Below are positions 13,313 to 59,284 of a DNA stretch of 64,000 nucleotides, piece after piece. Where the stretch lies: assembly GCA_021234535.1 (NCBI GenBank), contig CM037841.1:10312825-10376824 (forward strand), given 5' to 3'. The position numbers and the translations under genes were made by a program. The stretch comes from Stichopus chloronotus. Taxonomy: Eukaryota; Echinodermata; Holothuroidea; Aspidochirotida; Stichopodidae. Numbering within the stretch: the stretch's first letter is position 1; the number at the start of each line of letters is the position of its first letter. The notes under the pieces were generated by a model. The model was not told where the DNA came from. It searched no databases and worked only from the letters and a program-made list of their open reading frames with translations.

Positions 13313-15070
13313 AGTTTGCACCCCCTCCCCTTGGGAAGGTCTTTTAAGGTCTTCTTAAATGCTCCAGATTGCAGGAGATCTGCAGAATTTCACAATTTTC
13401 CCGGGAAAGCATCCCCCCTAGCAAAAACTTTCTTGTACGCTCCGCGCCAACCGATCGTGGCGCTACGCTCGGATCTTTCAATTGCAGTAATTCCGCCTGA
13501 GGCTACGGTCTCCCCCTCCACAAATTCCTGGTACGCCACTGCTGGCGCCCCTGTCAATCAAATTTATTGTTTGTCTCAAAATATGCAATATCTTACCAGT
13601 TTTGCCCTTTCGAAGTTACAAAAATCCTTCCATTGCTCACAATTCTGCAAATACCTCAGAGTTTCCTGGGTTTTCACCTGGTCACGTTAATGGACGTTAC
13701 CCCCAGGGAAAACTATTGGACCAGTTCAATACACCTAAAACCATAAAAAAAGTGCAGTGTATAGACCCTTGTCGGGCACGTTAAATCAGCTATTCAAACC
13801 TGTCAGTTAGTCAAACATGTCCTTCCCACATTTCCCACAAGATCAGTAGACTACAGGGAGCTGTTGCCTGTATACGCCTGGCTTAGTGCTCCCTGGACTA
13901 AGCTGTCAACTCTCATGCGCCTCGTGGCTCCCAGGTAATTTGGTATGTAAGACAAAGCCATTTGGTGTGACATGAACCGTGGAGCTCCCGCCAGGGACCG
14001 CTCTGAACTCGATCTAAAAATAGCACCACGGAAGTTCCTCTCGGTTCCGATTGGACGCGCACATGCACACGCAATACACATATTATAACACTAGATCATC
14101 TCACCCTGGTGGTACCGTACTTGGTCAGTTTACACAGGAACATATCAATCTCGAAGATAAAGTGGTCAATTGATGAAGGAAGCAAAAGGTAGGTAACTTA
14201 CAGGTGGATAATCATACTTCTAATACGGAGAACTAGTTATGCATTCTCTCAAAAGATGTGTATTTTAAATATGCGTGGGTTAAGTGACTAACCTACAGTA
14301 GTCTGGGCCGTTACTTAGGGAGCCTAACTTTAGCATGGCCGAATGTAGAATGAGTTCGTCAAACCTAACAAGGCTAGTCCTCGAACAGGGCGAAATGCTC
14401 CGTTACATTGCCTAAGCTTCACAAGTGAAGTGAAATGTAATGGCCGAACCCCAGTAGCCCAACTACTCAATCCTACTTTCGTTTCGTTTATTTTCGTTCA
14501 TACATACATATATACATACAGGCATATTAAGAAGAAAGATGCAGTCGTAGCAGTGGAATGAACAGGACGCTAGAAAAAACATATGTTTATCGCAGCTAGC
14601 GACCTTAAAGGAAACAGAAAACACAGAAAAAAGCACAAAAACAAGAAGATGAAGGGAAAAAAGAAAAAAAGGCTCCAGTCAAAAAAGCATACAGTTCAAA
14701 GCACGTAATTGCCAATGAGATGAGATTTCATTTTACATTAGCTGAAGGAGTGTAGTGAAATACTTTTTAACATCACTGTACATGATATAGGCCTACTGTA
14801 CGCTGACCAAGTACTGTCACTTTTTAGGCCAAGGCCCTGACGTAACTTTCAATAAAGTTCAATCATCAATATGAACATTTTGTGTGGTCGTGTGTGATTT
14901 TGTGTCATGTGTGTGTTCATGTGTGTTCAGGCAATATTGTGACATAGCTGATTGGGAGGAATGGTTAAATATTGGTAGCATATACAGGAAAATAGTGGAA
15001 CTGCCAATTTGAGAGGGGGCTACAGCGCTAATCATAGGTTAAATCTTTAAGAAATAAATAAGTCCAAAAT

Positions 15071-16234
15071 GCAATGGGAGGGTCTCACTTTGCCCCTTCC
15101 TCACGGTCAAACTCTGATGCCGATGGCCCCCATACTCCACAGGCGTCAAGAACAAACACAATTTTAAATCCCCAGAGAGTAACAGGGTTATATCCTCATC
15201 CGTCTAGGAACTGGGGGCTCAAAATGGGGGTCAACTTTGCCAATTTCATTCCCATTGACTTTGTACGTAAATCACTTATCAAAAATAAACTAAGTCCAAA
15301 ATGCAGTGGGAGGGTCTCACTTTGCCCCTTCTTCACGGTCAAACTCTGATGCCGATGGCCCCCAAACTCCACAGGCGTCAAGAACAAACACAATTTTAAA
15401 TCCCCAGAGAGTAACAGGGTTATATCCTTCTCCGTCTAGGAACTGGGGGCTCAAAATGGGGGTCAACTTTGCTAATTTCATTCCCATTGACTTTGTACGT
15501 AAATCACTTATCAAAAATAAACTAAGTCCAAAATGCAATGGGAGGGTCTCACTTTGCCCCTTCCTCACGGTCAAACTCTGATGCCGATGGCCCCCATACT
15601 CCACAGGCGTCAAGAACAAACACAATTTTAAATCCCCAGAGAGTAACAGGGTTATATCCTTCTCCGTCTAGGAACTGGGGGCTCAAAATGGGGGTCAACT
15701 TTGCTAATTTCATTCCCATTGACTTTGTACGTAAATCACTTATCAAAAATAAACTAAGTCCAAAATGCAATGGGAGGGTCTCACTTTGCCAACTCCCCAC
15801 GGTCAAACTCTGATGCCGATGGCCCCCAAACTCCACAGGCGTCAAGAACAAACACAATTTTAAATCCCCAGAGAGTAACAGGGTTATATCCTTCTCCGTC
15901 TAGGAACTGGGGGCTCAAAATGGGGGTCAACTTTGCCAATTTCATTCCCACTGACTTTGTCCGAAAGTCCGAAATGCAATTGGTGGTGCTTTACTTAGCC
16001 GATTCTTTAAATACTTCACAGTGTAAAAAGAAAAACACTTGTACAAAAATAATATTGATATTTCTAGTGCTGAGTGACTTTTTTTTTGTTTACTTTTGTA
16101 GTTTCATTATTTGATTCTTATCAGTATATGGTAGAATGAGCATTTAAACTTGGTGTTTTATTGTTCTTTAAATAACAGATAATACATAGACAATACAGTG
16201 AGCATGGACGTGCCATTACAGGCTTAACATATAG
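15071..16234 (+). repeat. Left terminal inverted repeat with four 232-bp tandem units
   Basis: Units begin at about 15071, 15303, 15535 and 15767 with GCAATGGGAGGGTCTCACTT. They repeat every 232 bp with only a few changes per unit. A unique-sequence segment (about 15970-16234) follows, ending CAGGCTTAACATATAG. The whole arm recurs inverted at 21870-23034. The 91-residue open frames within each unit on both strands are by-products of the repeat, not genes. Confidence 0.93.
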
Positions 16235-16261
16235 AAGACTGATTGAAATACTGCACGGGAG

Positions 16262-17056
16262 TAATCTTAAGTATATCAGACAAATAGGACGAGAGGTTGG
16301 GATAAGGGGGGTTGTCAAAATGACTTAAATAGACATTATTAAGAAAATTCGAGACACGTTGGTTAAGGACAGCACAAAATTTGACAAACTGTTTTCAAAA
16401 TTACAAGGTTCCACTGGCGGTTGGGCTTCGATGGTTAGTCCACATGGCATAGTCTATGCAGCAAAGTTTTTGCTCAGAGCTGAAAGCCGTAGGGACATTG
16501 TTGACTTACTTCAGTCAATGAAATGTATGCTGAATGTCGTTATTGTGGACATGGCAAACATGGTAGCTGCACATGGGAATAAACGGTTTCCGGAGATGTT
16601 CATCCAAACAATGGAATGCTTGCTGAACCATCTGCAAGGACAATGAGTTTGGTTAAAAATGGTAACTTTTTAAAGAAATTACCGTGGCTGGAAGAACAAC
16701 AGTCGGTGCAGATTGAAGATGGCACTTGGCATCCTGTGACAGGTTCAAAGGAACATTATTGTCTGTTTGACCGTTTACATGAGGGAAATATCAAAGGGGA
16801 ATTTGAAATGTTACGAAGGGTACAGTTTGTGCCTCAGTTATTTGGCAAAGTAAACACTCAGGCACAGGAACAATTACATAGTGAGATTAATAAAAACAAC
16901 TATTTCTTGAATCACATGACCCCTGTGAAATACTTATTTTTATTCAGAAGTATATTAGATTTGAGAAATAGGGATAAGAATAGAATTCAGATGCAAATGT
17001 TATCAAAGAACATGGGCACTCCACTTCAATTTAACAATTTGGGTAAGGTACTGTAG
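16262..17056 (+). pseudogene. C-terminal part of a KDZ/Zisupton-like transposase, frameshifted
   Basis: An upstream segment (about 16240-16325) reads like a SAP-type helix pair ending GREVGIRGVVKM before a TAA. The next frame, from about 16332, contains FDKLFSKLQGSTGGW, HGIVYAAKFLLRAESRRD and VVIVDMANMVAAHGN, up to about 16590. There it shifts frame and continues GDVHPNNGMLAEPSARTM, then HYCLFDRLHEGNI and QEQLHSEINKNNYFLNHMTP. The conserved D in IVDMA and the E of the QEQL helix are plausible members of the RNase H-fold catalytic set (inference). The N-terminal zinc-binding part and upstream catalytic residue are absent. At least two disruptions (stop near 16325, shift near 16590) make it a remnant unless small introns are present. 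Confidence 0.6.
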
Positions 17057-17082
17057 GACTCCAATGTGGAAATCCGCCGCCA

Positions 17083-17355
17083 GTGGAAGAGGGCGGTACT
17101 TCTTCAAAGCAACATGACGTGGGGGAATATCTAGGCAAAGGCCCACAACAATTAGATCAAACAATACAATCAGAACAGACAAAGAAATCAGAGGAAACAA
17201 AACAACATGATAAAATCGACAGAACAAGAAAACGAGGAAATGAGCCTAATTTACAAAAGCCTACCAAAAAAAGCAAAGCAAACCAAAGAAAAGAAAACCT
17301 GTCATGTGGCTACCACACCTCAGTCTCACCAAAAATGAAAGATCAATTTTACTAG
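17083..17355 (+). CDS. Polar lysine/glutamine-rich linker segment of the transposon
   Basis: A third frame downstream of the transposase part encodes a charged, low-complexity stretch with repeated K, E, Q and T and a basic TRKRGNEPN/KKSKANQRKE region that looks like a nuclear localisation signal. It lies between the transposase and the Ulp1 domain and may be a linker joined to one of them by splicing or before a frameshift. No domain was recognised. Confidence 0.3.
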   Translation: MEEGGTSSKQHDVGEYLGKGPQQLDQTIQSEQTKKSEETKQHDKIDRTRKRGNEPNLQKPTKKSKANQRKENLSCGYHTSVSPKMKDQFY

Positions 17356-18047
17356 AAAGGAAATGGTTAAATGATATTATTATAAATGCTGGACAGACTA
17401 TTTTGAAAGACTCATCTGTCGTCAGTGGACTTCAAGATACACTTTTAATGCAGTCTACTGGTTTTGTTCCAGAAGCTATCGAATTTGTTCAGGTGGTCAA
17501 TATGACCAACTCTCATTGGGTAGTCTTAAGTAATAAAGGTAGGTCAGGCCCAAATGTATCTCTATATGATAGTTTTATCCGCATCAAACAATCTTACCCA
17601 CTTGAGATTGTGAAAGCCGCTGCATGTTTATTGCAGACAAAAGAGTCTGAAATATTCATTCATGTTATGGACGTAACACAGCAAAAAGATGGCTCTTCTT
17701 GTGGTGTTTTTGCCCTTGCTTTTGCGGCTACCCTTTGTGCCGGTCAAGATCCAACAAAAATGCACTATGATGAGGATGCATTGTGGCAAGGTCTAATTAT
17801 TAATCTAATTGCACTAGAAATGCTACCGTTTGGCATTAGATCCTCTGACCGAAGAGTAAAATTTCCTCCCCGTAAAAGAATTTTGACAGAAGAGATATTT
17901 TGCACATGCAGGAGACCAGATGACGGTGAAAAATGGCCCAGTGCACTGTTTGTAAGGAATGGTTTCACGAGCTCTGTGTGGGGCGGATACCACGAGGTGA
18001 ATTTTACTGCTTCTTTTGTCGAAGGAGACTCAGTAAACAGAAAGTAA
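17304..18047 (+). CDS. Ulp1-like (C48) cysteine protease domain of the transposon
   Basis: SUMO-protease-fold domain. The segment WLNDIIINAGQTIL is the usual entry helix of the fold. Catalytic residues by position from the first Met are His71 (NSHWVVL), Asp89 (LYDS), the oxyanion Gln126/127 (VTQQKDG) and Cys133 (SSCGVFALA). In the order and spacing expected for C48 peptidases, all are present, so the domain could be active. Downstream it runs into IFCTCRRPDD, the first half of a PHD finger, after which the reading frame is lost. C48 domains are known cargo of Zisupton and some CACTA/MULE elements; whether it matures the transposase or removes SUMO from host proteins is not known. Confidence 0.8.
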   Translation: MWLPHLSLTKNERSILLERKWLNDIIINAGQTILKDSSVVSGLQDTLLMQSTGFVPEAIEFVQVVNMTNSHWVVLSNKGRSGPNVSLYDSFIRIKQSYPLEIVKAAACLLQTKESEIFIHVMDVTQQKDGSSCGVFALAFAATLCAGQDPTKMHYDEDALWQGLIINLIALEMLPFGIRSSDRRVKFPPRKRILTEEIFCTCRRPDDGEKWPSALFVRNGFTSSVWGGYHEVNFTASFVEGDSVNRK

Positions 18048-18241
18048 AGAAAAGTAGAGAGAGAATGGACAGTATTCAGTCAGTTAATGATCTCATAGAA
18101 TTAAAGAATAGGTACGGAGTCCACAAGTGGCACATACCAGCTGTAGAACTGTACAATTTTGTAAATAAAATTGCATTCGACAACACCTTTCCCGATGCAA
18201 GCAGCAAGTTAGCAGTTTTAGAAAAGCTACCTGAACACTGA
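17895..18241 (+). CDS. PHD finger segment of the transposon (split by a frameshift)
   Basis: The zinc ligands run across two frames. FCTCRRPDDGEK is in the Ulp1 frame and continues in the next frame as CTVCKEWFHELCVG and FYCFFCRR. Together they give the C4HC3 order of a PHD finger of the type that reads histone H3 tails. The frame changes at a run of five A near 17928 (GAAAAATGG), which could be decay, sequencing error or slippage. The finger is followed by about 65 residues (DSIQSVNDLIELKNRYGVHK, then a helix-rich part ending LEKLPEH) with no domain I recognise, then a stop at 18239-18241. Confidence 0.65.
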
Positions 18242-18554
18242 TTTACCCACTGATATTCGTGGAGTTACACTTTCAACTCCAGGCACAGAGAGTTTTGACT
18301 TATTATATGTTTATGGGTCTGTCCATCGGACCATGATAGCTTTGTACGAAACATTAGTACATGAGATGGCGCATGCCAAGGAAAGTACGAGTGGTGGACA
18401 TAGAGGTGGTCACAGCACATATTACAGGGCCGTGGGGAGGAACGTAGCGAAGGTGCTAAATGCTAATTCTCGTCTGATTCCAATCAGAGAGATTGTTGGT
18501 GTAAAGTTAGATGTCAAAATTCTTAATGCAAGAATGAAACCTCACTTTTCGTAA
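18234..18554 (+). CDS. SprT-like zinc metallopeptidase domain of the transposon
   Basis: The open frame can be extended upstream of its first Met (18333) to about 18234, giving NTDLPTDIRGVTLSTPG and LLYVYGSVHRTM, which follows on from the PHD frame by a one-base shift. The zinc-binding helix is ETLVHEMAHAKE (HEMAH at 18360-18374), followed by a GGHRGGHSTYY segment that supplies a plausible third histidine. HExxH followed by GH is the arrangement of SprT/Spartan-like proteases, which in hosts cleave DNA-protein crosslinks. The domain ends in a short tail, RMKPHFS. Carriage by a transposon is unusual in my knowledge. Only the core of the fold is present, so assignment rests on this motif. Confidence 0.55.
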   Translation, partial: NTDLPTDIRGVTLSTPGTESFDLLYVYGSVHRTMIALYETLVHEMAHAKESTSGGHRGGHSTYYRAVGRNVAKVLNANSRLIPIREIVGVKLDVKILNARMKPHFS

Positions 18555-21500
18555 AACATAGGTTGCACTGTACTCGGTGGTGTCTGCAGCGTAAGTTGGA
18601 GACTTTGAACGACGTACGTTTTCAGTAAACCTTGTTGTTCGTGCTGGCGTGTGTCTGTCTGTATGTGTGGGTGCGTGATGGTGTTTGTAACACTTAAATT
18701 GTCAACACGATATATAAAGATATGTTATTTCGATTAACACGATACAAAGATAGTGACAACGGAAGTATTTTTTACATATTACATGTTACTATATCGTATC
18801 AAGTAGAAAATTGTATTGTTTCGGTGGATGTCAAGTGTCACTGGGGCAACAATGGTCGACAACGGAAAACATGGTAACACGTTGTCTCAAGATGGGAATC
18901 ATGTAAACTGCTAGGCCTAAGCGTGTTAAAGAGTATGTGAAGTAAAGGAACCGTGGTGATTTTGATGTGGCTCAAAGTTCGTCTTATGTCACCAGAGGTC
19001 GAACACTTGATTCATATCTTACGATAAGACGGGCCTGTGGTCAAACTGTAGACTTCAAAAGTTATATTGTTTGAGTGTGATAACACTTATGCAGAATCTG
19101 AGGGCAACTGGAATCGAACGTAATGGGCCGTCATTAAACTTTGAAGTACTCATTGCTTAATTGAAGTGAATTAAACTAAGGACGCAATGTATCTTTACGC
19201 CTTTGCGTACAAAATAATTGTTGCTGCCAATATGTGAAACGTGCTGCGTCTTGAGGTAAACGCAGATTTGTTTTTAGTTTACAATTGCGTTTGAACATAA
19301 AGGGGAAATCAGGGTTTATTTTCACAATTCATTTCCCTACAATTCCCCACCGGTATCGTACAATGAGTTATAACTAACAAATATGATCAAGATTATCTAA
19401 AAAAATGTGGGCAATTTCGAAAAACGAGTCAAATTCCCAAAAAAAAAAAAAAAAATCGACGAAGAACTCTGAAAGTTGGTAACATCCATATTCATCGAAT
19501 CAAATATGAATATTTAATACCAGCGCCTTTTCAAGGTATGAGGAGGTGTGACTGAACAGTTTCATACGTAGCCAACATGTGCTGTATGTATAATCAACTA
19601 TCACTTACAGTGAGTAATGCACGAACAGCATGGGAACCGTAAGCATTCGGTTATGTTTATTCATATAACCTCATCTCGATTTCACGCTGTGATTGGTCAT
19701 CGTATAGAGGAGGCTGTCTTGTCTTGTGCATGAATGTTTATTTTTTGTACCCGACATATATTACGATTTTTCATTTAACTGTAATTATCGCATTAATTAT
19801 CGTTTCTTCTACCTTCAAACACCTCCCCAACGTCTCTATATTTCGGTGAACAATCAGTTAAGAAAGAAAAATCAACTAAAGGTGAATTTTATCAGTCAAA
19901 CCCTGATTTGCCTTAAATAAGGCATTTATGATGTGCGCTGTCAACTTGCAGAATTCGAGACACTCGAACACTTGGAATTTTGGTTATTAGTCCAGACAAC
20001 TGGAATTGAACTTTGCATGTCATTTATTACCTCGTGTGTTCAAAATTTAAACTAAGAAGCACTCGTTCAGATTGAGATGTAATGTCACTTGTCAGACCTT
20101 GGAACGCATCGTAGCCAATTAATTTTGTGTTGATTGTTTATTATTACTATTTTTGTTTCTAATATGATGTGAGTCTTGAAATATCTCAGAAATATCACAT
20201 TTAAAGGGATTGGCTGTTGAGGAAATTGATGTATAAAAATTAGGAGTATTTTCTCTTTGTATTGGTAAAAGCCATCTCTCAATAGCATGTGTGGTCAGCA
20301 AGTTATAAATTTTTAAGGGATTTTTTTCTTGCAAAATGGTACATTGCACTATGGGGAATGTGTTATGTCACCCGGGCGCTACCACAGCAATATACTTTGT
20401 ATTTTGAAAAATTATTCTTTTCACTTAAAAACCCACTCAAGTGTGGTACCCTGGTAGACACGGTATCTCAAGAAGGGTAGATTGATTGAACTTTGAAATT
20501 GGTATGTTGGTTGCCCTTTGGTTTGTATAAATATTTGAAAGGGATCACAGAGTCCTTTGACTTTCTGGTTGATTCCTTGGCTGAGGCAGGCAAGGAATCT
20601 ATACGGTCATGATGGCGGGATGTGTGCGCATGTTACGCGTTGGTTTGTATTAAACAAGGTATCTCAAAAATGGATACATAAATGAACTTCAAAGGTAACG
20701 TGTAGGTAGTAAATTGTAAGTAGATAATCCTTAAGGTTTTCGCTTGGGGTCAAAGGTCATTTGAGGTTAACGTATGCGAAAGTATGAAAATCCATTAATG
20801 AGATATCTCATCAAGTGAATGTCACTAGAGCTTCAAACTGTTAACATTGGTAAGTCTTAATGAGTAGATGGTCCCTGTCATGTGTATGGCGGTCAAAGGT
20901 CAAATGGGGTCAATAAAGGGCATAGTGTGAAAACTCTTGTAATCGCAATATCTAAATAAAGGAAAGTTACTGGAACTTAAAACTTGATGTGCGTGTTGTC
21001 CATTGTAGGTAAATGATCCATAGTCCTTTCCGCTTTTTTTTTTTTTCAAAAACGTGATTAGAGGTTAGAGAGTAAAAACCTATTCAGAAACATCTCAATA
21101 ACTGAACATTGCTGTATCTTCAAACTATTAGCAAGTGATACATTTTCTTTGTGTCGGTCAAAGCTTATGTGAGGTCAGTAGAGATCATTGTTTGTAACCT
21201 TCAGCATATGTTATCTGACGAGGAAGGTGTTTGAACTTCAAAACTAGCACGTTTCGTCCTTTTATTTTTATCCCTTTTGGAAATGAATCACAAAGTCATC
21301 ATACTCTTTGGTTATTTTAATTATCTAGTTAAAGCTAATGTGTCACTTTCGACCTTGCGAGGTATACATGCATGTAGAGAAAATCGATACTCTCAAACCC
21401 CCCACTCTTGTGGATTCCTTACCGTGCATGGTACAGTACATACAGGAAGGTGTTAAGAACACCTCCCTGGTAGGCCTACATACATCGTAATTTTGACTCT

Positions 21501-21869
21501 TATTTTACACTTGCTTTGTTTAAATTCATTGATGTATTCATTACTTACAGCAAGTACAATTCTCACTGCGCTGTAATGAAAATTCACATTTTATGACTTA
21601 ACTTTATCTCAATTACTGTATCTCCATTTGAACTGGGGGTAAATTTACTGCATCATTTTCGACTTTGTAGTACAAAACACTGCAGTTCAAAGAACTTGAA
21701 TAATCTCTTACCGTCCACCGTTGCAGATTTCTTTATATTGTCTGCTGCATTAAATCTTTATTTGCCTATTATTAGTCTGCTTTGGTTAATGTAAGTAATG
21801 GATTCATTACTTAATAAATGCATGTATATAGGTTAAAAGAAAATTTTTCTTTGACTATAAGTGACTCCG
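18555..21869. other. Non-coding 3' half of the transposon core
   Basis: AT-rich with no frame longer than about 76 codons and no recognised domain. A poly-A run lies at 19440-19455. An AGGTCA-rich minisatellite repeat occupies about 20567-21330 and looks like a later insertion. Confidence 0.6.
20567..21330 (-). mobile_element. HINE/pearl-like minisatellite repeat, copy D (nested in the DNA transposon)
   Basis: It begins with TTGATTCCTTGGCTGAGGCAGGCAAGGAATC, a stem-loop like the end of the copy at 37212-38399 in reverse. Diverged units follow with GTCAAAGGTCATTTGAGGTTA, GGTCAAAGGTCAAATGGGGT and ATATCTCA/AACTTCAAA words. The far end is unclear. It lies inside the core of the KDZ-like transposon, so it is probably the younger insertion. 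Confidence 0.5.
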
Positions 21870-23034
21870 CTATATGTTAAGCCTGTAATGGCACGTTCAT
21901 GCTCACTGTATTGTCTATGTATTATCTGTTATTTAAAGAACAACAAAACATCAAGTTTCAACGCTCATTCTACCATATGTTGATAAGAATCAAATAATGA
22001 AACTACAAAAGTAAACAAAAAAAAAAGTCACTCAGCACTAGAAATATCAATATTATTTTTGTACAAGTGTTTTTCTTTTTACACTGTGAAGTATTTAAAG
22101 AATCGGCAAAGTAAAGCACCACCAATTGCATTTCGGACTTTCGGACAAAGTCAATGGGAATGAAATTGGCAAAGTTGACCCCCATTTTGAGCCCCCAGTT
22201 CCTAGACGGAGAAGGATATAACTCTGTTACTCTCTGGGGATTTAAAATTGTGTTTGTTCTTGACGCCTGTGGAGTTTGGGGGCCATCGGCATCAGAGTTT
22301 TGCCATTTGGAGGGGGTAAAGTGAGACCCTCCCATTGCATTTTGGACTTAGTTTATTTTTGATAAGTGACTTATGTACAAAATCAATGGGAATGAAATTG
22401 GCAAAGTTGACCCCCATTTTGAGCCCCCAGTTCCTAGAAGGAGAAGGATATAACCCTGTTACTCTCTGGGGATTTAAAATGGTGTTTGTTCTTGACGCCT
22501 GTGGAGTTTGGGGGCCATCGGCATCAGAGTTTTGCCATGGAGAGGGGGCAAAGTGAGACCCTCCCATTGCATTTTGGACTTAGTTTATTTTTGATAAGTG
22601 ATTTACATACAAAGTCAATGGGAATGAAATTAGCAAAGTTGACCCCCATTTTGAGCCCCCAGTTCCTAGAAGGAGAAGGATATAACCCTGTTACTCTCTG
22701 GGGATTTAAAATGGTGTTTGTTCTTGACGCCTGTGGAGTTTGGGGGCCATCGGCATCAGAGTTTTGCCATGGAGAGGGGGCAAAGTGAGACCCTCCCATT
22801 GCATTTTGGACTTAGTTTATTTTTGATAAGTGATTTACGTACAAAGTCAGTGGGAATGAAATTGGCAAAGTTGACCCCCATTTTGAGCCCCCAGTTCTTA
22901 GACGGAGAAGGATATAACCCTGTTACTCTCTGGGGATTTAAAATTGTGTTTGTTCTTGACGCCTGTGGAGTTTGGGGGCCATCTGCATCAGAGTTTTGCC
23001 ATGTGGAGTTGGCAAAGTGAGACCCTCCCATTGC
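21870..23034 (-). repeat. Right terminal inverted repeat with four 232-bp tandem units
   Basis: The mirror image of the left arm. The inner end reads CTATATGTTAAGCCTG and four 232-bp units run out to CCCTCCCATTGC at 23034. The unit contents vary slightly in the segment after CACTTTGCC (CATGGAGAGGGGG, CATTTGGAGGGGG, CATGTGGAGTTGG), matching the kind of variation on the left. Confidence 0.93.
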
Positions 23035-23522
23035 ACAACAAATTATCTTATATGATTTGAACTCAGTGTGGATTTGAATACCTTATTGAAGGATTTAGCC
23101 CATGTCAGCGCTATAGCCTCTTTTGGCCAAGTTTAATCTTGTATCTGTTCTTAAATACTTGTAAGAATTGCTGGGTGGAGACTGTAATTTGAAACATGAT
23201 CCCTAACTTAAATCACTCAAATCACTTTAACAATCATAGATGAAAGTCTCCTGACATATCTTTAGCAATGTCAACGTCAAAAATGAACATTTTTGGGACA
23301 AGCTCTGTGAAAGGAGAGTGTAACGGAATGCACAGTCTTGCTTAAGGTCTAGGCACAGTACTACTAGGAAAGGTCTATTTTGAATTTCTAAGACTCAGTA
23401 GTAGATTGTCATACCCCTGTTATCTTTGACAGTGAGGGCCTATAATCAGATGTGACTAATTATTATCGTGTGCATGTCTGCATACTTTCCAGCAATGTAT
23501 GTATACCATGCAGGCTTTACGT

Positions 23523-24260: not shown

Positions 24261-26857
24261 GTGCAGTGCATAACCTTTTTGGGGTTTGGTTCCGGTCTAG
24301 ATCAAAAGTTATTTGCGTCTCTAGGAGGTGCAAAATGTTAGCTAGGCTCTTAGCAGGTACTTGTAGTCTTCTTTACTACTAGTGGATATACAAGTATTTG
24401 GTGTAACCAACTGGCAAAGACCAGCAATAATTGAAGTGTTTTGTAAAATTCCATTAGTATTGTTGGTCTAGTAAATTTGAATTCTGTGACTTTTAATGCA
24501 ATGCACAACAGAGAGCAGTACATACTCTTGTCATCCTCTTCTTATAAATCAATTACTATTTACTGAGCTATTTTGAAAGTTACAAGTACAAAATTCCCAA
24601 AAGACAAACAATTAGTTTTTGATTGTGCTTTACTTAAATAGAATAACTCACATACAGAGGGAATTTTACTAGCTGATAAGTGACCATTGACCTCTGAAGT
24701 CACTCAGACAGCTACTATCAATCCCAGAGAGATCTTTATCCAACAATTGACACTGTGGAATATGTCGCACATTTAGAGAGAAGTGATTTTTCATGTCAGT
24801 TTGGATTACCTATAAGAGGTTTTTTTTTTTTGAGATGTGATCAGATAGCAGTTACATTTTTCTTCAACCAGGGAATGAGTCAGTGCGACCCTGTAATGGA
24901 CTTACTGCAGAGATATAACCTTAAGTGTTGTAAATCATTTGCTGGCTGCAGAATTCTTGGCAATCATTCACAAACCTGGAAGGGAATTTTAATTTTAAAC
25001 TTTTACCCTAGAACTAGAAAAAAATGCTAATATTTTAGCACCTGTCTTACTTCATTCACCACATTCAAGTAGTTGTTATGATTCAGTTTTGCCACGTCAC
25101 ATGGTATACATTACCTACATCCAGAAAAGACGAGTACTCGAACCTCGATTGGGGTCTCACAGCTAATTCCTCTGGCTCACAGTATCTTAGTGGGGTATTT
25201 GGACATTCACGTATATTATAGGCAACGAATCACTAAGCCTCTTGGCTTTTTGGTTCAAGACAAGATGTCGCTGTTCTTGAAGGTATTTCCCCTAAATTGG
25301 GCTACATTGGGTGACTGTTTCTTCTTCAAAATGCTGTACATCCTGAATAGTACAATAACATACGATATGATGTAATTCCAAAGATGACATGTTATGGTAC
25401 CGTAGCTGAAGAATGCCTGTCTTGACTTACTCAGTAACACTATCTGCAGATCAGAGCTTGACACATTTGATGAATAAAATTTATCAGTTAAGAAAATAAT
25501 GATAAGTGAATATTCAACATATTCACTGCAGGTAGATAGAGGACTACAAGAAAGAGATGGAGCATTGATGAGTTCCCCAATGCGGAGTAACGTGGTCTAA
25601 TTAAGTGCATTCCCTGCATGGTTTTCAACATCTTTGCACTTTAACACTGAAACACAAACACACAAGCAGAATTCAAAGGCACACTACTAAAATAAAGCTC
25701 CTTTGTATAAAAGGAAATCCTCAGTGATGAAAATAAAAGCTGAATATCTTTTTTTTTTCTTTTCACTGCAGACTCTTCACATCCTACTCTAATATATTGT
25801 TTAAATGATACGTTTTGGTATGCACAGATTTCCCTTTCATGCAATTTACCACTTTGAAAAGTAAATTCGTTTTACAAACTATGTGTTTCTATTGAGATAT
25901 GATTTGGACCAACAACAAAAGAAAAATATCTAATTTTTTTATGACATATCAATCTACTTTCTTCTCCAATTTCAAATCACTTACAGAGTGTGACACAAAA
26001 AGGAAAACTTACTATCTCTTGCTCTTTCATTGCACAATAGTGCACTGTACTCTTTACCTTAAATGATATACAGCGCTTTGCTTGTGACGAAGCAACAAGG
26101 TCATTTATACAAATTCTTTGGCTTCCATGTGTTGTGGTTTTTAGGTTGTGTTCAAACACCTGCCTTTAACCGTAAGTGCAATTAATGGACGAATAGCTGC
26201 CCAAGGTAGTTTTGCCTTGAAATTGGCATATAAGTTGATTTTGTGTATGATGCACTTACAGTACTTAGAAAATGCATGGCACTGTAAGTGGGTACAGTAG
26301 AACCAGTATTATGGAGGATTTAAGGGAGCTTGTTAGTATTGATTGTACCATACATGTGCAAGTGAAATGTATTAAAAAGCGTAAAGCCTTGTTTGCAAAG
26401 TGCTTTATAAACAGGAAAGAATGTGACCACAATCATTGCTTTCAAAGTGCCATCGCTTCATGAAATTGCTCATTGAAACAAGCAAGTTGACATTTAACTA
26501 ACATATTCCACATTAAAACAGTAGCATGCATGATATGTAGGCGAAGTGCGGTCTTTCAGTCAAATATTCCTTTCCTTGGACCGATCCATCTCTTTCCAAT
26601 TCATTTCAAGGCATTTTGATTTAAGATCTCTCTAGGTTTGGTGCACCCTCTTTCTTAACCAATTCTACAGGTCCACATGTCAAGCTAAATGTTTTTACAG
26701 CCTCTCTGTATTGTTTTTATCTACAAAGTTTAAATTTATATATATAATTTATAATATATATATGAAGTAGGAAATTTCATTTTTGCTCTTAATTTGACAG
26801 GTATTAATGACATGGTGCATACAGTATTGAACATTCTGCTCATTTTCCTCTTTTCAG
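24261..26857. other. Gene-free stretch upstream of the TRIM-NHL exon
   Basis: AT-rich with no recognisable coding sequence. A TA-rich tract lies at 26735-26765. The stretch probably holds the 5' intron of the TRIM-NHL gene, because a splice acceptor (CCTCTTTTCAG) ends at 26857. The non-coding first exon was not located. Confidence 0.5.
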
Positions 26858-28966
26858 ATGGCTGATACAGATGGACCCATTGGTAATCTTGCGTCAGTGC
26901 AAGAGGAACTGGAGGGCATGGTAGAGTGTCCAGTTCACTTTGGCATCTTGGTGCAGCCAAAGAGTCTCCCATGTGGCCATGTCATCTGCTTGGATTGCAT
27001 CAGGCGGTGGGTGGAAGCCAGGAGTGGCGTTCTCGTCTGTCCCGAATGCAACAATGAACAGATTTTACCCAACGAAGGTGTGGAGGGCCTTCCAAACAGT
27101 TACAGATTGATGAGACTCTGTGAGTTCCTGGGGAACCTGAACATTGCCGCAAGCGCTCTTGAATCAGGGGACCAAGGGGCTGCAGCGGTCCCCCCAGTGA
27201 TGCGGTGCGAGGTGCACATAGACCTGCCGTTGGACAGAATCTGCAGGGAATGTAAGCAGCCAGTGTGTCTGGAGTGCATGAGGACACAGCATGCTGGTCA
27301 TGTCTGTCTGGATGGAAGCATGTTCTTGAAACACATGGACCGTCCATTGAAGAAACTCCAGGACCAGGCAAAAATGAAACAGAAGGAGGCAGAAAGATGT
27401 CGTGCAGAGTTAATCAAGCTGAAAGAACAGATGAAATCCAACCATCAGGCCGCAAATGCTGCTATCGACCAGTTCATCGTGAGATTGATCGATAAAGCAA
27501 GCCAAGCTGGTAATTACCTCAAGCAGCAGACAGATGCAATGTATCATGGGAAGGAACGATTGCTTGATAGCCAGGAGAGTCTTTTGACAGGTATGATTCA
27601 TGAGATCGTAGGAGCCATACAGTCTGTGCATGAGCAGCCCAACCATGTAGAACAGAACCTAGCCAGCCTGCCACCATTGGTCGACGATGCCTCCACACGA
27701 CTCAAAGCTGTTCAGCAGATGACGGTTCAGTCAGCACCACTCGTGAGCAGTGACATCTTGGTTGAGTTAGATGAATCTATCTTTGAGTGGTTCAATCCCA
27801 GAGGGAAAAAGAGAATAGGGCAAGTATGCACCCCAGAGGTAGCCTGTCCATCAGAGTGCGAAATCAACATAGTTTCCAAAAAACCTTCCCTCCCCTTTGA
27901 AGAAGTTGTTGTGGTGCTGATCTTGAAGGACGGCCATGGGGCACTGGTCAAGGTTCACGACATAACTTTCATATCAGCAGAGGTGGTTAAGCCCAATGGC
28001 AACAAAGTTCAGCAGGTCTTCAAGAATTGTGGTGGTGGGAAATTTGTTACCAGCTTTACACCACAAGCTATTGGCAAATACCTCCTTAGTGTGAAGGCCT
28101 ATAACGAGAAGGTCAAGAATTCTCCCCTGAAGGTTCTAGTGAGTCCAAGGGGTACCCAGACAGTAGCCTTGAAAGGACATCCGCCTTTTGAAGGATTACA
28201 TGATGTTCTCAAGGTGGGGGAAAATTTCCTCGCTATCGATACCCGCAAAATTGAAATGGTGGACAAAGAGGGCAGAATGGTAAACAAATTTGTAATCAAT
28301 GACAAAGTTTTTCAGCCTTATGCAGTAGCCTTTCACAACCAGGCTTACTATGTTACTGCACTAAAGGGTAAGAAGGTGGTCAAATTTAGTCGAACAGGCT
28401 TGCCAGTCCTGGAAATAGGGAACGAGATCCTAGATGCACCAACTGGCATCGCGGTGGACAGCGACGGCTCCATCTACGTTGCCGACGACAAGAAGAACTG
28501 CATATTCAAATTCAGAAGCGACGGCCAATTACTTCATCTCCTCAGTGGACCTGGCAGTGACAGGGACCAGCTGAGCCATCCTTGGTACATGAAACTCAAC
28601 ACCCATGGACACTTGGTGGTTGCTGATAATGGAAACAGACGGATTCAGGTGTTTGATCCGCAATCTGGGAACCACTTGAAGTCCATCTACGTGGAGCACA
28701 AAGGAAAACCTTTAGCCTGTCGAGGTCTGGATGTGGACATGAATGACAACATCTATGTTACAGCTAGGGCCCCTGCCAAAGGTGAAGTTTTTGAATGTGT
28801 GAATGTCTACAGCCCCGATGGAGACTTACTTGGGTCTTTTGCAGAGAGTCCCCCAAAGAAGGGTCTGCATTTTGCCAGAGGAATCAGAGTAGTAGGTGGA
28901 GAAAGGAAATGCACAGCTCTGGTGGTTGACGGAAACAACAACTGCATAAAATTCTATGTAGTCTAA
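26858..28966 (+). CDS. TRIM-NHL E3 ubiquitin ligase (RING, B-box2, coiled coil, filamin, NHL)
   Basis: Complete 702-residue frame in a single coding exon; the start codon follows directly on a splice acceptor (CCTCTTTTCAG). Domains in order: RING at 24-64 (C39, H41, C44, C47, C61, C64), B-box2 at 117-148 (CEVH, CREC, CLEC, H145, H148), a coiled coil at about 155-270 rich in K, E and Q, a filamin/Ig-like domain at about 328-430 (ending GKYLLSVKAYNEKVKNSPLKV), and NHL beta-propeller blades from about 440 to the end (APTGIAVDSDGSIYVADD, GHLVVADNGNRRIQVFD, DNNCIKFYVV-type ends). This is the TRIM2/TRIM3/TRIM71 layout. The family ubiquitinates proteins or represses mRNAs through the NHL domain. One oddity is that the second RING ligand is His27 (CPVH) instead of Cys. 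The subfamily cannot be fixed by eye, so no symbol is given. Confidence 0.9.
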   Translation: MADTDGPIGNLASVQEELEGMVECPVHFGILVQPKSLPCGHVICLDCIRRWVEARSGVLVCPECNNEQILPNEGVEGLPNSYRLMRLCEFLGNLNIAASALESGDQGAAAVPPVMRCEVHIDLPLDRICRECKQPVCLECMRTQHAGHVCLDGSMFLKHMDRPLKKLQDQAKMKQKEAERCRAELIKLKEQMKSNHQAANAAIDQFIVRLIDKASQAGNYLKQQTDAMYHGKERLLDSQESLLTGMIHEIVGAIQSVHEQPNHVEQNLASLPPLVDDASTRLKAVQQMTVQSAPLVSSDILVELDESIFEWFNPRGKKRIGQVCTPEVACPSECEINIVSKKPSLPFEEVVVVLILKDGHGALVKVHDITFISAEVVKPNGNKVQQVFKNCGGGKFVTSFTPQAIGKYLLSVKAYNEKVKNSPLKVLVSPRGTQTVALKGHPPFEGLHDVLKVGENFLAIDTRKIEMVDKEGRMVNKFVINDKVFQPYAVAFHNQAYYVTALKGKKVVKFSRTGLPVLEIGNEILDAPTGIAVDSDGSIYVADDKKNCIFKFRSDGQLLHLLSGPGSDRDQLSHPWYMKLNTHGHLVVADNGNRRIQVFDPQSGNHLKSIYVEHKGKPLACRGLDVDMNDNIYVTARAPAKGEVFECVNVYSPDGDLLGSFAESPPKKGLHFARGIRVVGGERKCTALVVDGNNNCIKFYVV

Positions 28967-39900: not shown

Positions 39901-42900
39901 ATAAATTAAGGATCATATAGCTCTGTGCTAAATTGCTAATAATGAGAAACGTAGGATAGTCCTACAGTATACCTCTTCTTATGTGAAGATTCTAATAACT
40001 TACTAATGTATCTTTGCAGAAGGAGAGAAACATAACAAGTTACACAGAACTACATTGTAACTAAAATGCAGCCACTTTAATACAAAATTGTGCAAATTTC
40101 TGTATTAAACCACATGCATTTCTTAATGTCTGCCAACAAATGCAATGTTTAATACTATGACCACCAAATTACAATATATTTCAAAAGGAGATTGCAAAGG
40201 ATGAAGCTATACCTATTCTTACTTGCACCTCTAAAATTTGTTTGTACAAACCTGCATACATGCTGTATGGTAACTGAATATGAATTGGTACAAAACTGAA
40301 ATGTAAGTATTCTACATAAAATACTTTCTGTTATAACTTTGGGGGAATACATACCTGACTTACATTAATCGTATTTATCTCCTTCAGAAAAGAGCAATAA
40401 GGCTTATTACAAACTCAAACTACTGTGCTACTACTAACAGGCTTTTCTTTAATAAAAAAGCGTTAAATATTTTTGATGTTTATAGGTATCAGGTTTTGAT
40501 TTTTATGTACAAGTATGTTAATGATAACTTGCCCACAGTTTTTGACAATGACTTCAATTTAAATCGGGATTACCACCACTACCACACTAGGAAGTCTGAT
40601 AATTTTCAAGTAAGTAGATTTTGCACCCACGCTTTTCATCATTCTCTTTATGTCATGGGCCCAAAGTTCTGGAACAATCTTGATAATGTCATTAAGAATT
40701 CAAAATCCCTACGTATATTTTGTAAAACCTTAAAAGGAACATATTTTACACAGGTACATTGGTTAAACTACTACTACTTTCACCTTCTTTATGTTATGTT
40801 TTATGTATTGTTTTTATATGTCTATCTATACTTTCATGTTTGGTTTATATGTTTAAGGGGGGGAGGCTGTTTGTAAACACATTCTGCATCCCCAGCCCTC
40901 CTGTGCTCCCTTGTCTTGTTAATTGTCAACGTTGTACATTTTATTGTGGAAAAAAAAATTGAACTTGAACTTACCAATTCTGCACCACTTGATATTATCG
41001 TATTCTGTCCTTGCTTTCTCTCAATTAAATCTGTTGCATTTTGGAAAATGTGCCTCCTGCATGTTGCGTCTCGAATTGCTGGACCATAGGTGAGTTCAAA
41101 GTATTTCCCTGACCTCAGGGCCTATTAGAGTGAAGAGATTTATCAACCAGAAAGCCAAAAGGCTTTGTGATTCCTTGCCACATGGTTATATCATAACAAA
41201 GTTGAATTATCCACATGGCAAGTATAAGATCAACGGCAGTTATTTTTCTTGATACACCACAAGCCTTTAACTCAAAATGATCTTTATTTTGGGTAACCTG
41301 ACATGACCGTGACATTTGACATCCACTAAAAGCAAAAGGGATCACCTACCCAGTATGGCCAACCCACACATCAAGTACAGTATGATATCAGTCAACATTA
41401 CCCTTCTGGAAAGTCACTACCACATTTCCAACACTGGGCTTTGTTTGTACCATTTCTTTTTGGCGCTGTCTCAGTTTTTCAGTAGTTTACTTTGTACTGT
41501 TTCCACTTTTGGTCCTTCAATTTCTGTAGCATTTTGATCCGAGATCATAAAAGCTCTCCCTAAGTCAAATATCTCAGTTAAGTTGCGGTTCGGTTCCTTC
41601 AACACTCTTCGCCGCAATCGTGATGAACTGCAACTTTGAATTATCTGTGATTTGATTTCTTTATCTATATCCATAAACTGACAATAATTTGCTAATTGCC
41701 TCAGTCTGGGGGTAAACACATCCAACGTTTCGCCTTCCCCTTGCTTCGCTTGACGAAACTTGAAAATCTCGTATTCAGTATTTTTTATAACTTGAAAATA
41801 CTCTGTCAGCTGGGTTTTTGCTGTGTCATAATCTGTAGAGTCTCCAGTTTCATTAAGTGTTTGAAATATTTCAGCTACGCTTTCCCCTCCAAAATGAAGT
41901 AACATTGCCCTTTTACGAGCTTCATCCTTGATATCAAATGCAATGAAGAAGTTTTCCAATCGAAGTAGCCATTTCTCCCACCGCATGCCAATACTTGCAT
42001 GATCCGAATTATCTCCGAGACTGAACTCAGGAAAATGTGGATAGGACATTTTAATTGTCAGGATTTAATCAATTTTCTTCTAGTATTAAGGTCTTCCTTG
42101 AAGGTTTTCAGAGTCCTTAATAAAAGGATCCCATCTTCATCGCCACTGTAAGATTTTGAGAAAACACACTGAAGACTCAGCAATGCATCTTGCTACTTGT
42201 ATTTCTGATGATATATACAGTAACTGCAGATTATTCTCATAGTAAATATTTATGGAATGCCTTAATATACACAGGAGACAGTCAGTGGTAGACTGGGCAG
42301 GAGTCAGCTTTGTTCTATCAAAGAGATAAATGAAGCGCAGGTGACAGCTATCTGACCCCATGACCTCCCAGTTACTGAGACAACCTATGGAGGCCTCTGA
42401 GGGAGTGTTTGAAAAGTAAAAAGTTATTCTCTACTTACAAATGCAGTATATTGAAAATACTATTTCAAACATGACATGGTCCTGAGTGGCTACCTTAGGC
42501 TGAAAAAGCTTAAATAAGTTTGCAATGACAACAATCCCTATTGAGTTAACTGTGTGGAAGGAATCAACAAATGCCAATAGTAATTTGGTACAATCTAGCC
42601 CCATATAGATTTGTACGGTAGTTTATAATAACCACAATAATGGTGTTTAGTGACTTTAGAATTCCAAAGAATTCGGTTGACCTCTGATAGAGTCCTTTCA
42701 GATATAACGTTTGGTTTATGAGTTGTAGCCATGCCGACTCTAGATAATACACCAAGGAAAATAAATGAGGTAAACACATTCATTTTCCTCTTCTCCTGAG
42801 TATATTTTAAATTTTCGGTCTTTCCTGGACCATCATCAGAATACAACTAAAAATCTGCAAAGGTTACAACACAGACCCCACTGCAGCAGTAAATGGAGAA

Positions 42901-45900
42901 CACAATGTAATGAAGCCATGAGGGAAGGATTAGACACAGACGACCGCAGAACAACAGGCCTGAGAAACCAATAAAAGTAGAATTACAGCTGAGTATTATG
43001 TCTAACAAGTCTTCCTGTTGACCATTCTTCTTTTCTATTTAACCTGGGATTGAGATCACCTATACAAACCCCCTCAGCCACCTGTCGCCGCATAGGGTCA
43101 CCAATGTGTGAATTGAGGATACTGACATCTACATCAAAAACCTCCCCATTGTGGCATTCAACACTGTGATTATAGAGAACTGAAGTTTCCTTATCCCTGC
43201 TGTTAAAATGTTCATTGAACCTTTCCCCCAGACTCCTAGATGTTTCCCCTACATATTTAAAATCTCCTTCACAAATCCGACACTGTATACAATAGACCAC
43301 TTCCCTTTTCTTGCAGATCCCTTTCTTAAAAGTACACAATTTACAGCCCGAATCCTTGCAGACTGCACCAGCAAATAGGTTAGACTTGCTCAATGTGTCT
43401 ACAAGTCTAGTGCCAGCCCTCTCAAGTACGTTGACCTTCAAGCCAGTTTCCTTTATAATACTCTTACACTTTTTCTGTAATTCACTATTGGGGGTAGCTT
43501 CTACAAACAACACAGCTTCAGTCTGTGTTTTCTCGTTTCTGAACCAATTGTACTTTCTGCTGACCTTTTCCTGTTCCCGTGTATCACGTTCCCATGATTT
43601 AGGTCTAAACATGGGAATAATCCCATCTCTGTCATTGCTAACAATTTTACCAAACCGTTTCTTAGCTCTGCTATACACTTCGAAACGATCAAATTTTGTG
43701 TACCCACTGTTTTGCATTTTGTTCATGAAAAATTGTACAGCAGTTACTCTCTCTTGGTCAGGTAAGCTGAGGGAGACATTTCTCATCACCCTAACGAGGT
43801 CATTTACCAATATGTTTATTTTGGTTCTGAGATTAAGTGTGCCGTCTTTGTGTATTACTTGTTTACTGCTCATTGGCTTACAGTAATGAGTGTGCTGGAT
43901 AACTGAGTAGTTATTATTCCCGTCAATCTCATTCTTGGGCCAAACCTTCAAATCCAATACTGGCATCCTGCCATCACTATGAAGGCTGGGACAGTCGTAG
44001 GTAACCAGAATACTGTGGTGAATGGTATTAGCAAGGTCTCTCAGCCTAACCATGACCTTCTCATCTGTGTCATCTGCACACCCACCCCTCTTTTCAATTA
44101 CACAGCAAATGTTGTCAACATACCTAGAGTACATCAGACATGTGATGTTTTCCATGGTAAGTATCCTCTTCAGCTCACGGTCCCACCATATCATAAAAAC
44201 TTGTGCTATGTCTCCTGCTAAGGTAACACCTATAGCACCCCCCTCTTTCTGCTTGTACAATCGGTCATTAAACTGACACATGTGATTTTGCAGGACCCAT
44301 TTCATGGAATAATTCAAGGCATAGATTGTCATTTTTCTCAGGTGTGTTTTGTTCGGCAATATCTCTGCTTTTCTCCATGCATTCCACCTTCTTTGAGGGT
44401 TGTCATTTTTCTCAGGTGTGTTTTGTTCGGCAATATCTCTGCTTTTCTCCATGCATTCCACCTTCTTTGAGGGTTGTGGCTGGAGGCAACCCCAGTCATC
44501 GTTGGTTTCTTCTCTCTAGTGGAGGATCTGGTTGGGCAGTATCTCTTGAGGTCATCGGGCAATTGTTCGCCTGTCTCCATCTCAATGAGTCTCAAGCAGA
44601 GGCCAAGCTCCTGGGGGTCTATTCCTTCAAACTGGATGTCACTTGTTTGTAGGAGTTCACAACATCTGTCAACTGCAAAGCTAACATTGATGGAGGGGTA
44701 CAAGGCCTTGACATCCATGCTGCCAATAAAGGCCTCTTTCTTCTTCTCATTAACCCTCTGTATTCTAGACAGGAGGTCTTCAGTGCTGTCACAAGCCTCA
44801 GGGGCAGATGATATCAGTGGATGGATACATTGTGACAGAAGGTACGAGAGATTCCTGTTGCAAGACGTGATGGCGCCACAAACAGGTCTTAGTGGAGGGC
44901 CACCACAGCCAGCCTTGTCGGGTTTGTGGTCTTTCCTGAGGCCGTACAGAGGAGGAACATCGTTGTTACCAGTGATCAAATTGTTTCTTACTCTGTTGTT
45001 AGCATTCCAAATATGGCTCCAGATACTGGTTAAGGCATTGGTCTTTTTCTCGATATCTCTATACTCTTCAATGTCGCTAGCTTCCATACCCTGTAGATGT
45101 TCCTGCATAGCTACAACATAGTTCTCTCTAGTGTCCACGGAGAGCTTGCCAGATTTATCCGTGGGATATATGACGATGTCGCCTTTCTTGGCTCTTTCTT
45201 TTAGGCTTCTCAAGCCTTTTCTGGTCTCTTTGCTGATGTTTTCTTGTCCTTTGTTATTGTACATAGCCAATTCTTCTTTTATTCTCTGTTTGGCATAAGT
45301 CATACGCGCTTCGGTTTCTGGATTGTGTAGAGGTGGACGATAGACCCATTTGTTGCATGGTAAACTGGTTGGTCTGGTAGAGGAAAGGTCCAGAGATCTA
45401 GTTGTAGGGTCATAAAACTGACCGGTGTCAATACCGTTGCTCTTGTTCACATCAGACCCTTCATCATCGTCATTCGTTTCATTCCTGATGTTGTTGTTAC
45501 TTGTCTCCTGTCTGTGATTCTCCCATCTAAGCTTCTCAAATGTTTTTTCCAGCTCGATGATCTGGTCAATTTTGTTGATTTTTTTGTAGACTGGGAATTT
45601 TGGGTGCATATCTCAGACTTTCACTTCATCCTCTGTCACGGTCACGTTGCCGTACGCCTGTGGCGGTGTAAGGAGAAAGCTGTTGTCTAGATTATGATCA
45701 TAGGACGTAATGCCATCCTGTTCGTTTGGTGCATATTCTCTTGTGGATGCTGTACCTTTCTTCCTTAACCAACTTAGCCTCCTTCTGTAATGAGTGTCAA
45801 ATTTGCCTTTACAGAACCGAAGCTCCCTAGAGATGATGCGATCATATTCCTCCTTGAACTCTATTTTGATCCATTTTTTTGACTTGGTATGCCAGTGGTG

Positions 45901-59273: not shown

Positions 59274-59284
59274 ACAGTCAGTGC

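What the first reader, a model, noticed from the sequence alone, without database searches (positions are those of the whole stretch)
16262..18554. DNA transposon carrying transposase, Ulp1 protease, PHD finger and SprT-like metallopeptidase
The core between the long inverted repeats encodes two different protease types plus a histone-reading finger. The cysteine protease keeps its His, Asp, Gln and Cys residues. The metallopeptidase keeps HEMAH and a later GGH. In hosts, Ulp1 enzymes strip SUMO and SprT/Spartan proteases cut DNA-protein crosslinks. Covalent protein-DNA repair is controlled by SUMO, so an element with both could remove or process its own transposase from DNA ends, or act on host chromatin. 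A Ulp1 domain is known in Zisupton-type elements; I do not know of a described SprT-like partner.
Basis: partly seen in the sequence, partly recalled or inferred. Interest (0 to 1): 0.82.

Follow-up and report, generated by a model that had tools for sequence, protein, structure and literature searches.

The report
Transposase fused to two different proteases
A family of jumping genes in a sea-cucumber-like animal encodes, in one long protein, the cutting enzyme for its own DNA plus a SUMO-removing protease, a histone-reading finger and a Spartan-like protease, the kind cells use to clear proteins stuck to DNA.

Summary
Window 15010-23125 is a decayed DNA transposon with an imperfect 7-bp target duplication (6/7; exact in a sister copy). 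Broken frames at 16235-18554 encode a transposase C-half, a Ulp1/C48 protease with its catalytic residues, a PHD finger and a SprT-like metallopeptidase with HEMAH plus a third histidine. This copy is dead: the N-terminal half is gone and the left arm is an inverted copy of the 3' end. The same genome holds an uninterrupted 1,984-codon frame with zinc fingers, CxC4, transposase, Ulp1, PHD and SprT in one protein, and four more uninterrupted Ulp1-PHD-SprT frames, one a near-duplicate. Two other public proteins, P0001 and P0002, have the same order. Ten aligned SprT domains all match Pfam SprT-like, most below its curated cut-off, and keep the zinc motifs; their profile's best solved-structure hit is human Spartan. 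Between families the domain looks selected. Ulp1+PHD on a transposase is known (Ginger1); the SprT partner is the new part. Function is inferred: deSUMOylation plus DNA-activated proteolysis at transposon DNA.

The parts
15003..15009 (.). left copy of the 7-bp target site duplication (GCCAATT)
   Evidence: 6 of 7 match to right copy
15010..16234 (.). left arm: terminus TGAGAGGGGGCTACAGCGC, about four 232-bp tandem units, then an inverted copy of the element's 3' non-coding end
15052..15960 (.). 232-bp tandem repeat, 3.9 copies
16235..17056 (+). C-terminal half of a CxC4-type transposase in two frames; second Asp and Glu motifs present, first Asp (in the lost N-terminal half) absent
17057..17303 (+). 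basic, low-complexity linker in a shifted frame
   Evidence: translation
17304..17900 (+). Ulp1/C48-type cysteine protease, catalytic His, Asp, Gln, Cys kept
   Evidence: 26.7 bits, cut-off 20.7
17901..18019 (+). PHD finger, crossed by a frameshift
   Evidence: 27.1 bits, cut-off 24, frames joined for the search
18065..18554 (+). SprT-like metallopeptidase domain, crossed by a frameshift near 18230
   Evidence: 24.5 bits, cut-off 25.6
18360..18374 (+). HEMAH zinc-binding and catalytic motif
18411..18413 (+). third zinc histidine (GGHSTYY), 13 residues after the second
18555..21869 (.). 3' non-coding part of the element
   Evidence: no long frame on either strand
21870..23125 (.). right arm with 3.8 copies of the 232-bp unit, ending in a diverged terminus (CAAAAGAGGCTATAGCGCT on the minus strand)
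23126..23132 (.). right copy of the 7-bp target site duplication (GCCAAGT)

Best explanation
Shown: the window holds a dead copy of a DNA transposon family in which at least one other copy in the same genome encodes one uninterrupted protein of 1,984 codons, ordered zinc-finger-like motifs - acidic repeats - SWIM-like CxC..CxH motif - CxC4 - DDE-type transposase - Ulp1 - PHD - SprT-like metallopeptidase. Inferred: the C-terminal half is a chromatin-clearing module delivered by the transposase to its own DNA. The PHD finger docks on histone H3 tails. Ulp1 strips SUMO from silencing or repair proteins gathered at the element. The SprT domain, switched on by the branched or single-stranded DNA that excision and insertion create, cuts proteins that stay bound there (host repressors, histones, or the spent transposase complex), so that host repair can finish. 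About 0.97 for the architecture, 0.45 for the mechanism.
For: An uninterrupted 1,984-codon frame with all parts lies at C15:16240240-16246191. Five of 80 genome matches span Ulp1, PHD and SprT without a stop (read). The same order is in P0001 (Apostichopus japonicus) and P0002 (1,492 aa). HEMxHA and the third His are invariant in the 10 SprT domains aligned, and 10 of 10 match PF10263 at E up to 0.1. The profile's top PDB hits are Spartan 6mdx and 6mdw, E 4.4e-4 and 4.8e-4. pN 0.25-0.35 against pS 0.69-0.92 between the families of the C15 frame, L051/L040/L041, L034 and L044. Ulp1 Cys is kept in 10 of 11 SprT-carrying sequences. A 7-bp target duplication is seen in the three copies for which both ends were found (7/7, 6/7, 6/7). 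SPRTN is described as a DNA-dependent protease, and Wss1 as clearing chromatin-bound sumoylated proteins (abstracts).
Against: No activity is shown. DDE transposases are not known to need crosslink repair (recalled). The AlphaFold model of the C-terminal part is too poor to use (mean pLDDT 41.8), so the fold rests on sequence. The SprT score passes Pfam's cut-off in P0002 only and lies below it in the window, P0001 and the two own-genome frames scanned. Ulp1 has lost its Cys in P0001, P0005 and P0010. One uninterrupted copy, L051, has lost a PHD cysteine and small pieces of Ulp1. Only 1 of 11 transposase relatives found carries SprT.
Confidence: 0.45

Rival explanations
1. Polyprotein self-processing: the two proteases cut the long product into a free transposase and free effector parts, as viral and Polinton proteases do (recalled), and act on nothing of the host.
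For: The product is one very long chain with both proteases at one end. Wss1 cleaves itself when activated (abstract).
Against: Two unrelated proteases and a PHD finger are more than processing needs. Relatives replace the cassette with OTU (P0007) or keep Ulp1 without its Cys (P0005, P0010) and still have the transposase. Cleavage-site motifs were not searched for.
Confidence: 0.15
2. Anti-silencing device: the main task is to undo SUMO-dependent transcriptional silencing of the element (PHD-targeted deSUMOylation), and SprT removes DNA-bound silencing proteins or DNA methyltransferase from its promoter rather than serving transposition itself.
For: Ulp1, OTU and PHD recur on transposases of another superfamily, Ginger1 (passages). 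GCNA/ACRC, a SprT protein, has been linked to crosslinked topoisomerase 2 and DNA methyltransferase 1 (passages). Histidine spacing 13 matches GCNA.
Against: No data on SUMO or methylation in this host. It overlaps the best explanation and cannot be told apart by sequence.
Confidence: 0.28
3. Passenger domains: a host SprT gene was caught by chance, and the domain is carried without function.
For: Capture of host domains is common (recalled); only one of the 11 relatives has it.
Against: Metal and catalytic residues are invariant in the 10 domains aligned, down to 18% identity, and between families synonymous change is near saturation while protein change is not. In contrast window against L044, both decaying, gives dN/dS 0.96.
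Confidence: 0.07

Closest known systems
CxC4 / KDZ-associated transposases
   Same: 37-42% identical transposase over 83-100% of the query in 10 of the 11 proteins (the eleventh, P0012 of Apostichopus, 72% over 38%); CxC4 above cut-off in 6 of 9 scanned. P0004's source names it 'HMG domain-containing protein' (name cut off in the listing); the link to HMGXB3 is recalled.
   Different: Of the 11, only P0002 carries SprT. P0007 has OTU; P0005 and P0010 have Ulp1-like plus PHD. Pfam's KDZ transposase domain PF18758 matched none of the 9 scanned.
Ginger1 DNA transposons (Bao et al. 2010, PMC2836005; passages read)
   Same: C-terminal Ulp1, in one family Ulp1 plus PHD (Ginger1-9_HM), in others OTU.
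   Different: Transposase related to Gypsy integrase; no metallopeptidase is mentioned in the passages read.
Spartan (SPRTN), human 6mdx/6mdw
   Same: HExxH and third His; best solved-structure hit of the SprT profile.
   Different: His2-His3 spacing is 15 in Spartan (read from the alignment), 13 in 9 of 10 transposon domains and 17 in P0002. No Spartan C-terminal tail was looked for.
ACRC/GCNA
   Same: SprT-like domain with histidine spacing 13 (H596 to H609 in human, passage in PMC13092972); acidic repeats, as in the N-terminal part of the intact frame.
   Different: Not fused to a transposase. The shared spacing is a lead only; host GCNA could not be fetched.
Kyakuja, Dileera, Zisupton (PMC12730594; passages read)
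   Same: Kyakuja makes 7-bp target duplications, as seen here.
   Different: Zisupton makes 8 bp, as does the Dileera element Zisupton-1_PGr. The accessory gene there is a TET/JBP dioxygenase; the words peptidase, protease, PHD and SprT do not occur in that main text.

Membership tests
SprT-like (PF10263) | profile match at curated cut-off | tested here: inconclusive
   P0002 26.9 bits passes 25.6. Window 24.5, P0001 22.6, C2 copy 19.2, intact C15 frame 18.4 within the whole protein or 22.6 alone: below cut-off, E 2.5e-5 to 2e-3. 10 of 10 aligned domains match at E up to 0.1, best 3.2e-7.
SprT-like (PF10263) | HExxH plus a third zinc histidine downstream | tested here: met
   invariant in the 10 aligned; the decayed L037, not aligned there, reads HETVH
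SprT-like (PF10263) | minigluzincin-like fold | tested here: inconclusive
   AlphaFold model of P0001 with 7 rows, mean pLDDT 41.8, unusable
SprT-like (PF10263) | DNA-activated proteolysis | not testable with these tools
   needs protein
Ulp1 / peptidase C48 (PF02902) | profile match and His-Asp-Gln-Cys | tested here: met
   window 26.7 bits above 20.7. P0001, P0002, P0010 and the two own-genome frames score 12.9 to 17.9, below cut-off. His and Asp kept in 13 of 13, Gln in 12 of 13, Cys in 10 of 13.
PHD finger (PF00628) | Cys4-His-Cys3 profile match | tested here: met
   window joined frames 27.1, P0001 26.4, P0005 33.5 bits above 24. P0002 17.3 and the C2 copy 19.8 below; the intact C15 frame gave no row at E 0.1, though its ligands are visible; L051 lacks one Cys.
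KDZ transposons | KDZ transposase domain PF18758 | tested here: not met
   no row at E up to 0.1 for 9 relatives and 2 own-genome frames, nor at E up to 10 for the window transposase; that the held Pfam copy includes PF18758 is assumed
KDZ transposons | associated CxC cysteine cluster | tested here: met
   CxC4 (PF18717) above cut-off in 6 of 9 relatives and in both own-genome frames
Zisupton | 8-bp target site duplication | tested here: not met
   7 bp in the three copies with both ends found
Kyakuja | 7-bp target duplication and 5'-CA..TG-3' ends | tested here: inconclusive
   7 bp met. One end starts CA; the other reads TGAGA inward, so the plus strand ends in TCA, not TG.
DDE transposase | Asp, Asp, Glu on an RNase H-like fold | tested here: inconclusive
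   conserved D..D..E candidates in the alignment, chosen by eye. AlphaFold mean pLDDT 58.3 and no significant PDB match.
Ginger1 | Gypsy-type integrase core with GPY/F motif | not tested
   known only from the paper; no comparison of cores was run

The most novel reading that the evidence does not exclude
A eukaryotic transposon has built its own DNA-bound-protein repair enzyme: SUMO removal and Spartan-type proteolysis, tethered to the transposase and to histone tails, dismantle protein roadblocks at excision and insertion sites. The element would thus carry a private version of the host's SUMO- and SPRTN/GCNA-dependent crosslink-clearing pathway, possibly taken from GCNA.
Probability: 0.3. 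Interest if true: 0.88.

Novelty: new variant of a known kind. Interest (0 to 1): 0.7.

Why it matters
Ulp1, OTU and PHD cassettes are known on transposases, and their role is still a guess. A conserved Spartan-like protease beside them points to one shared task: clearing modified proteins from DNA during or after transposition. Several families in this genome keep both active sites, and an intact frame exists, so the question can be tested with separate domains. It would also offer a natural fusion that links SUMO removal to SprT proteolysis in one chain.

Tried and rejected
Chance HExxH: rejected, since the motif, third His and frame recur in at least five diverged families. Separate neighbouring genes: rejected by single uninterrupted frames. 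The apparent frame IIHRQYSEHGRAITGLTYR before 16235 is arm sequence, not coding; it was part of the queries, before I knew. The first protein search scored none of 2,745 candidates at E 0.001; only proteins of 0.55 to 1.75 times the query's length are considered. Viral-contig scans matched 1, 4 and 3 stretches, none a relative; alignment scans of viral and genome contigs did not run for lack of a conserved stretch. Both AlphaFold jobs were weak; a PDB fold search of the better one gave nothing significant. Comparison with the host's own SPRTN and GCNA could not be made: the genome search was busy, and answered only. Tree of nine C-terminal parts: long branches, one of six inner branches well supported, not used as evidence.

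Rows dropped: the ten SprT domains are a choice. Left out were the C2 copy and L041 (near-duplicates of rows used) and the decayed L035, L036 and L037. L051 and L040 in the set are 98% alike and L044 and the window are of one family, so the ten are about eight independent lineages.

Literature: ten searches. No listed title or abstract start describes a SprT domain in a transposon. The lists show part of the matches: 20 of 1,464, 20 of 215, 20 of 23, 5 of 5, none found, 10 of 611, 4 of 4, 8 of 32, 15 of 268 and 25 of 36. The founding KDZ paper (Iyer et al. 2014, recalled) is not held, so I cannot exclude that it or Repbase mentions such a fusion. The link of CxC4 to HMGXB3 and the absence of covalent DDE intermediates are recalled.
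Full report
What is in the window. The finding lies in a transposon copy of 8,116 bp, window 15010-23125, flanked by GCCAATT and GCCAAGT, a 7-bp target duplication with one mismatch. A sister copy on contig C17 (9,056 bp) has an exact 7-bp duplication, TCAGAGT, and a third copy (L033) matches at 6 of 7. These are the three copies for which I found both ends. The boundary was set from the conserved termini together with the C17 copy, then applied to the other two. The chance of 6 or more of 7 is about 0.0013 per pair on uniform bases. Each arm holds about four 232-bp tandem units.

The coding core. On the plus strand, broken frames encode a transposase C-half (from 16235), a Ulp1-type protease, a PHD finger and a SprT-like domain ending at 18554. 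Pfam gives C48 26.7 bits (cut-off 20.7) and SprT-like 24.5 bits, E 2.5e-5 (cut-off 25.6), and PHD 27.1 bits (cut-off 24) once the frameshift is bridged for the search; unbridged it is 16.7.

This copy is dead and rearranged. In 4 of 8 copies compared (L033, L036, L037, L038) the match to the window core starts exactly at 16235. Upstream of that point the window has an inverted copy of the element's 3' end, while those copies continue into the N-terminal half of the protein. The first catalytic Asp lies in the lost half.

The window is G000:C13:10312825-10376824 of an unnamed 719-Mb genome; a DNA search gave 36 matches and a protein search with P0001 gave 80, both lower bounds. At C15:16240240-16246191 one uninterrupted frame of 1,984 codons holds zinc-finger-like motifs, about twelve 40-residue acidic repeats, a CxC..CxH (SWIM-like) motif at 882, CxC4, the transposase with D (motif 1098-1107), D (1305-1313) and E (1411-1419), Ulp1 from 1571, PHD at 1767, HEMAH at 1921 and the third His at 1938. 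A C2 copy, which lacks the N-terminal part, shares 8,964 bp at 99.3%, so activity may be recent; the two also share upstream sequence, so a larger duplication is possible. Five of the 80 places span the three C-terminal domains without a stop: C2, C15 (two), C1 and C22. All five were read; one of them, L051, has lost a PHD cysteine and small pieces of Ulp1.

Relatives elsewhere. P0001 from Apostichopus japonicus (a sea cucumber) has Ulp1 (Cys replaced by Arg), PHD and SprT in one 361-aa protein, 59% identical over 96% of the PHD-SprT query, and was the only hit among 83 candidates. P0002 (1,492 aa, no organism given) has CxC4, transposase, C48, PHD and SprT-like, the last above cut-off. Of the 11 transposase relatives, P0002 alone has SprT; P0005 and P0010 have Ulp1-like without Cys plus PHD (P0010 may be incomplete); P0007 has OTU; P0004 ends inside a Ulp1-like part. 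P0003, P0006, P0008 and P0009 show no such domain by Pfam; P0011 and P0012 were judged by the precomputed domains only. Several of these are truncated. The cassette behind the transposase thus looks exchangeable. That the host is a sea cucumber is inferred from these matches.

Is it really SprT-like? Ten domains were aligned (choice explained in Tried and rejected): H99, E100, M101, H103, A104 and H116 are invariant, besides F77 and P139. All 10 match PF10263 at E up to 0.1, best 3.2e-7, though those whose scores were shown lie below the curated cut-off except P0002. The profile's two best hits among solved structures are human Spartan (E 4.4e-4 and 4.8e-4); the next is at 0.35. A single-sequence search with the window's domain found nothing. 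The second and third histidines are 13 apart in 9 of 10 and 17 apart in P0002. Human and zebrafish ACRC/GCNA also have 13 (passage in PMC13092972), Spartan 15. The AlphaFold model of P0001 is unusable (mean pLDDT 41.8), so the fold is not independently shown.

Selection. In the SprT part, comparisons between the families of the C15 frame, L051/L040/L041, L034 and L044 give pN 0.25-0.35 against pS 0.69-0.92; synonymous change is near or at saturation, so the ratio is not exact. Pairs of these with the more distant L049 and L050 give pN 0.48-0.53 and pS 0.70-0.90. Pairs of the window with the other families give pN 0.34-0.55 and pS 0.65-0.82. Close pairs within one family (L051, L040, L041) give dN/dS 0.35-0.44 on few changes. 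The window against its nearest copy L044 gives 0.96, as expected of decay (all). Ulp1 keeps His and Asp in 13 of 13, Gln in 12 of 13 and Cys in 10 of 13: 10 of 11 with SprT, none of the two without.

How it may work. Shown: all modules in one chain, both active sites conserved in most copies read. Inferred: the transposase brings the module to the element; PHD holds it on chromatin; Ulp1 removes SUMO; SprT, a type of protease that in SPRTN and Wss1 is activated by DNA (abstracts), cuts proteins bound at the DNA. Because DDE transposases are not known to attach covalently to DNA (recalled), the target is more likely a tightly bound complex, a host repressor or a trapped host protein than a covalent transposase. 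Self-processing and anti-silencing are live rivals. Bao et al. suggested that Ulp1 and OTU on Ginger1 may activate repair factors during or after transposition (passage); the SprT partner fits that idea.

Novelty. Ulp1 plus PHD on a transposase is known from Ginger1-9_HM. I found no report of a SprT domain on a transposase in ten searches (named in Tried and rejected), but I saw only parts of some lists and the library lacks the founding KDZ paper. I rate it a new variant of a known kind.

Noticed in passing
window 42983-47771: Two closely similar long frames with a weak GIY-YIG match (20.3-20.5 bits, cut-off 22.6), in opposite orientation, with further frames between: by eye a rearranged Penelope-like retroelement (label recalled, no reverse-transcriptase match was obtained for these frames).
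   Followed up: partly
window 26831-28966: Uninterrupted 711-codon frame with RING, B-box, filamin and NHL repeats: a single-exon TRIM-NHL-type gene.
   Followed up: partly
window 59216-59734: Start of a Sir2-family gene (29.1 bits above cut-off 24).
   Followed up: partly
window 41471-42064: Gag-like frame with a near-cut-off PNMA match (24.0 vs 25 bits).
   Followed up: no
G000 C15 and C2 copies (L045-L048): The 234-bp tandem array at the 3' end has about 15 copies in the C15 copy against four in the window; the C15 and C2 copies also share sequence far upstream of the frame (98% over 1,280 bp), so the unit copied may be larger than the transposon.
   Followed up: partly
P0007: A CxC4-type transposase relative carries an OTU protease (30.7 bits, cut-off 23.3) in the place of Ulp1-PHD-SprT.
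   Followed up: no
window element, L036: The two kinds of terminus (CA-type, TGAGA-type) are swapped relative to the coding strand in the window and at the 5' side of L036 but not in the C17 copy: the core may flip by recombination between the inverted repeats.
   Followed up: partly
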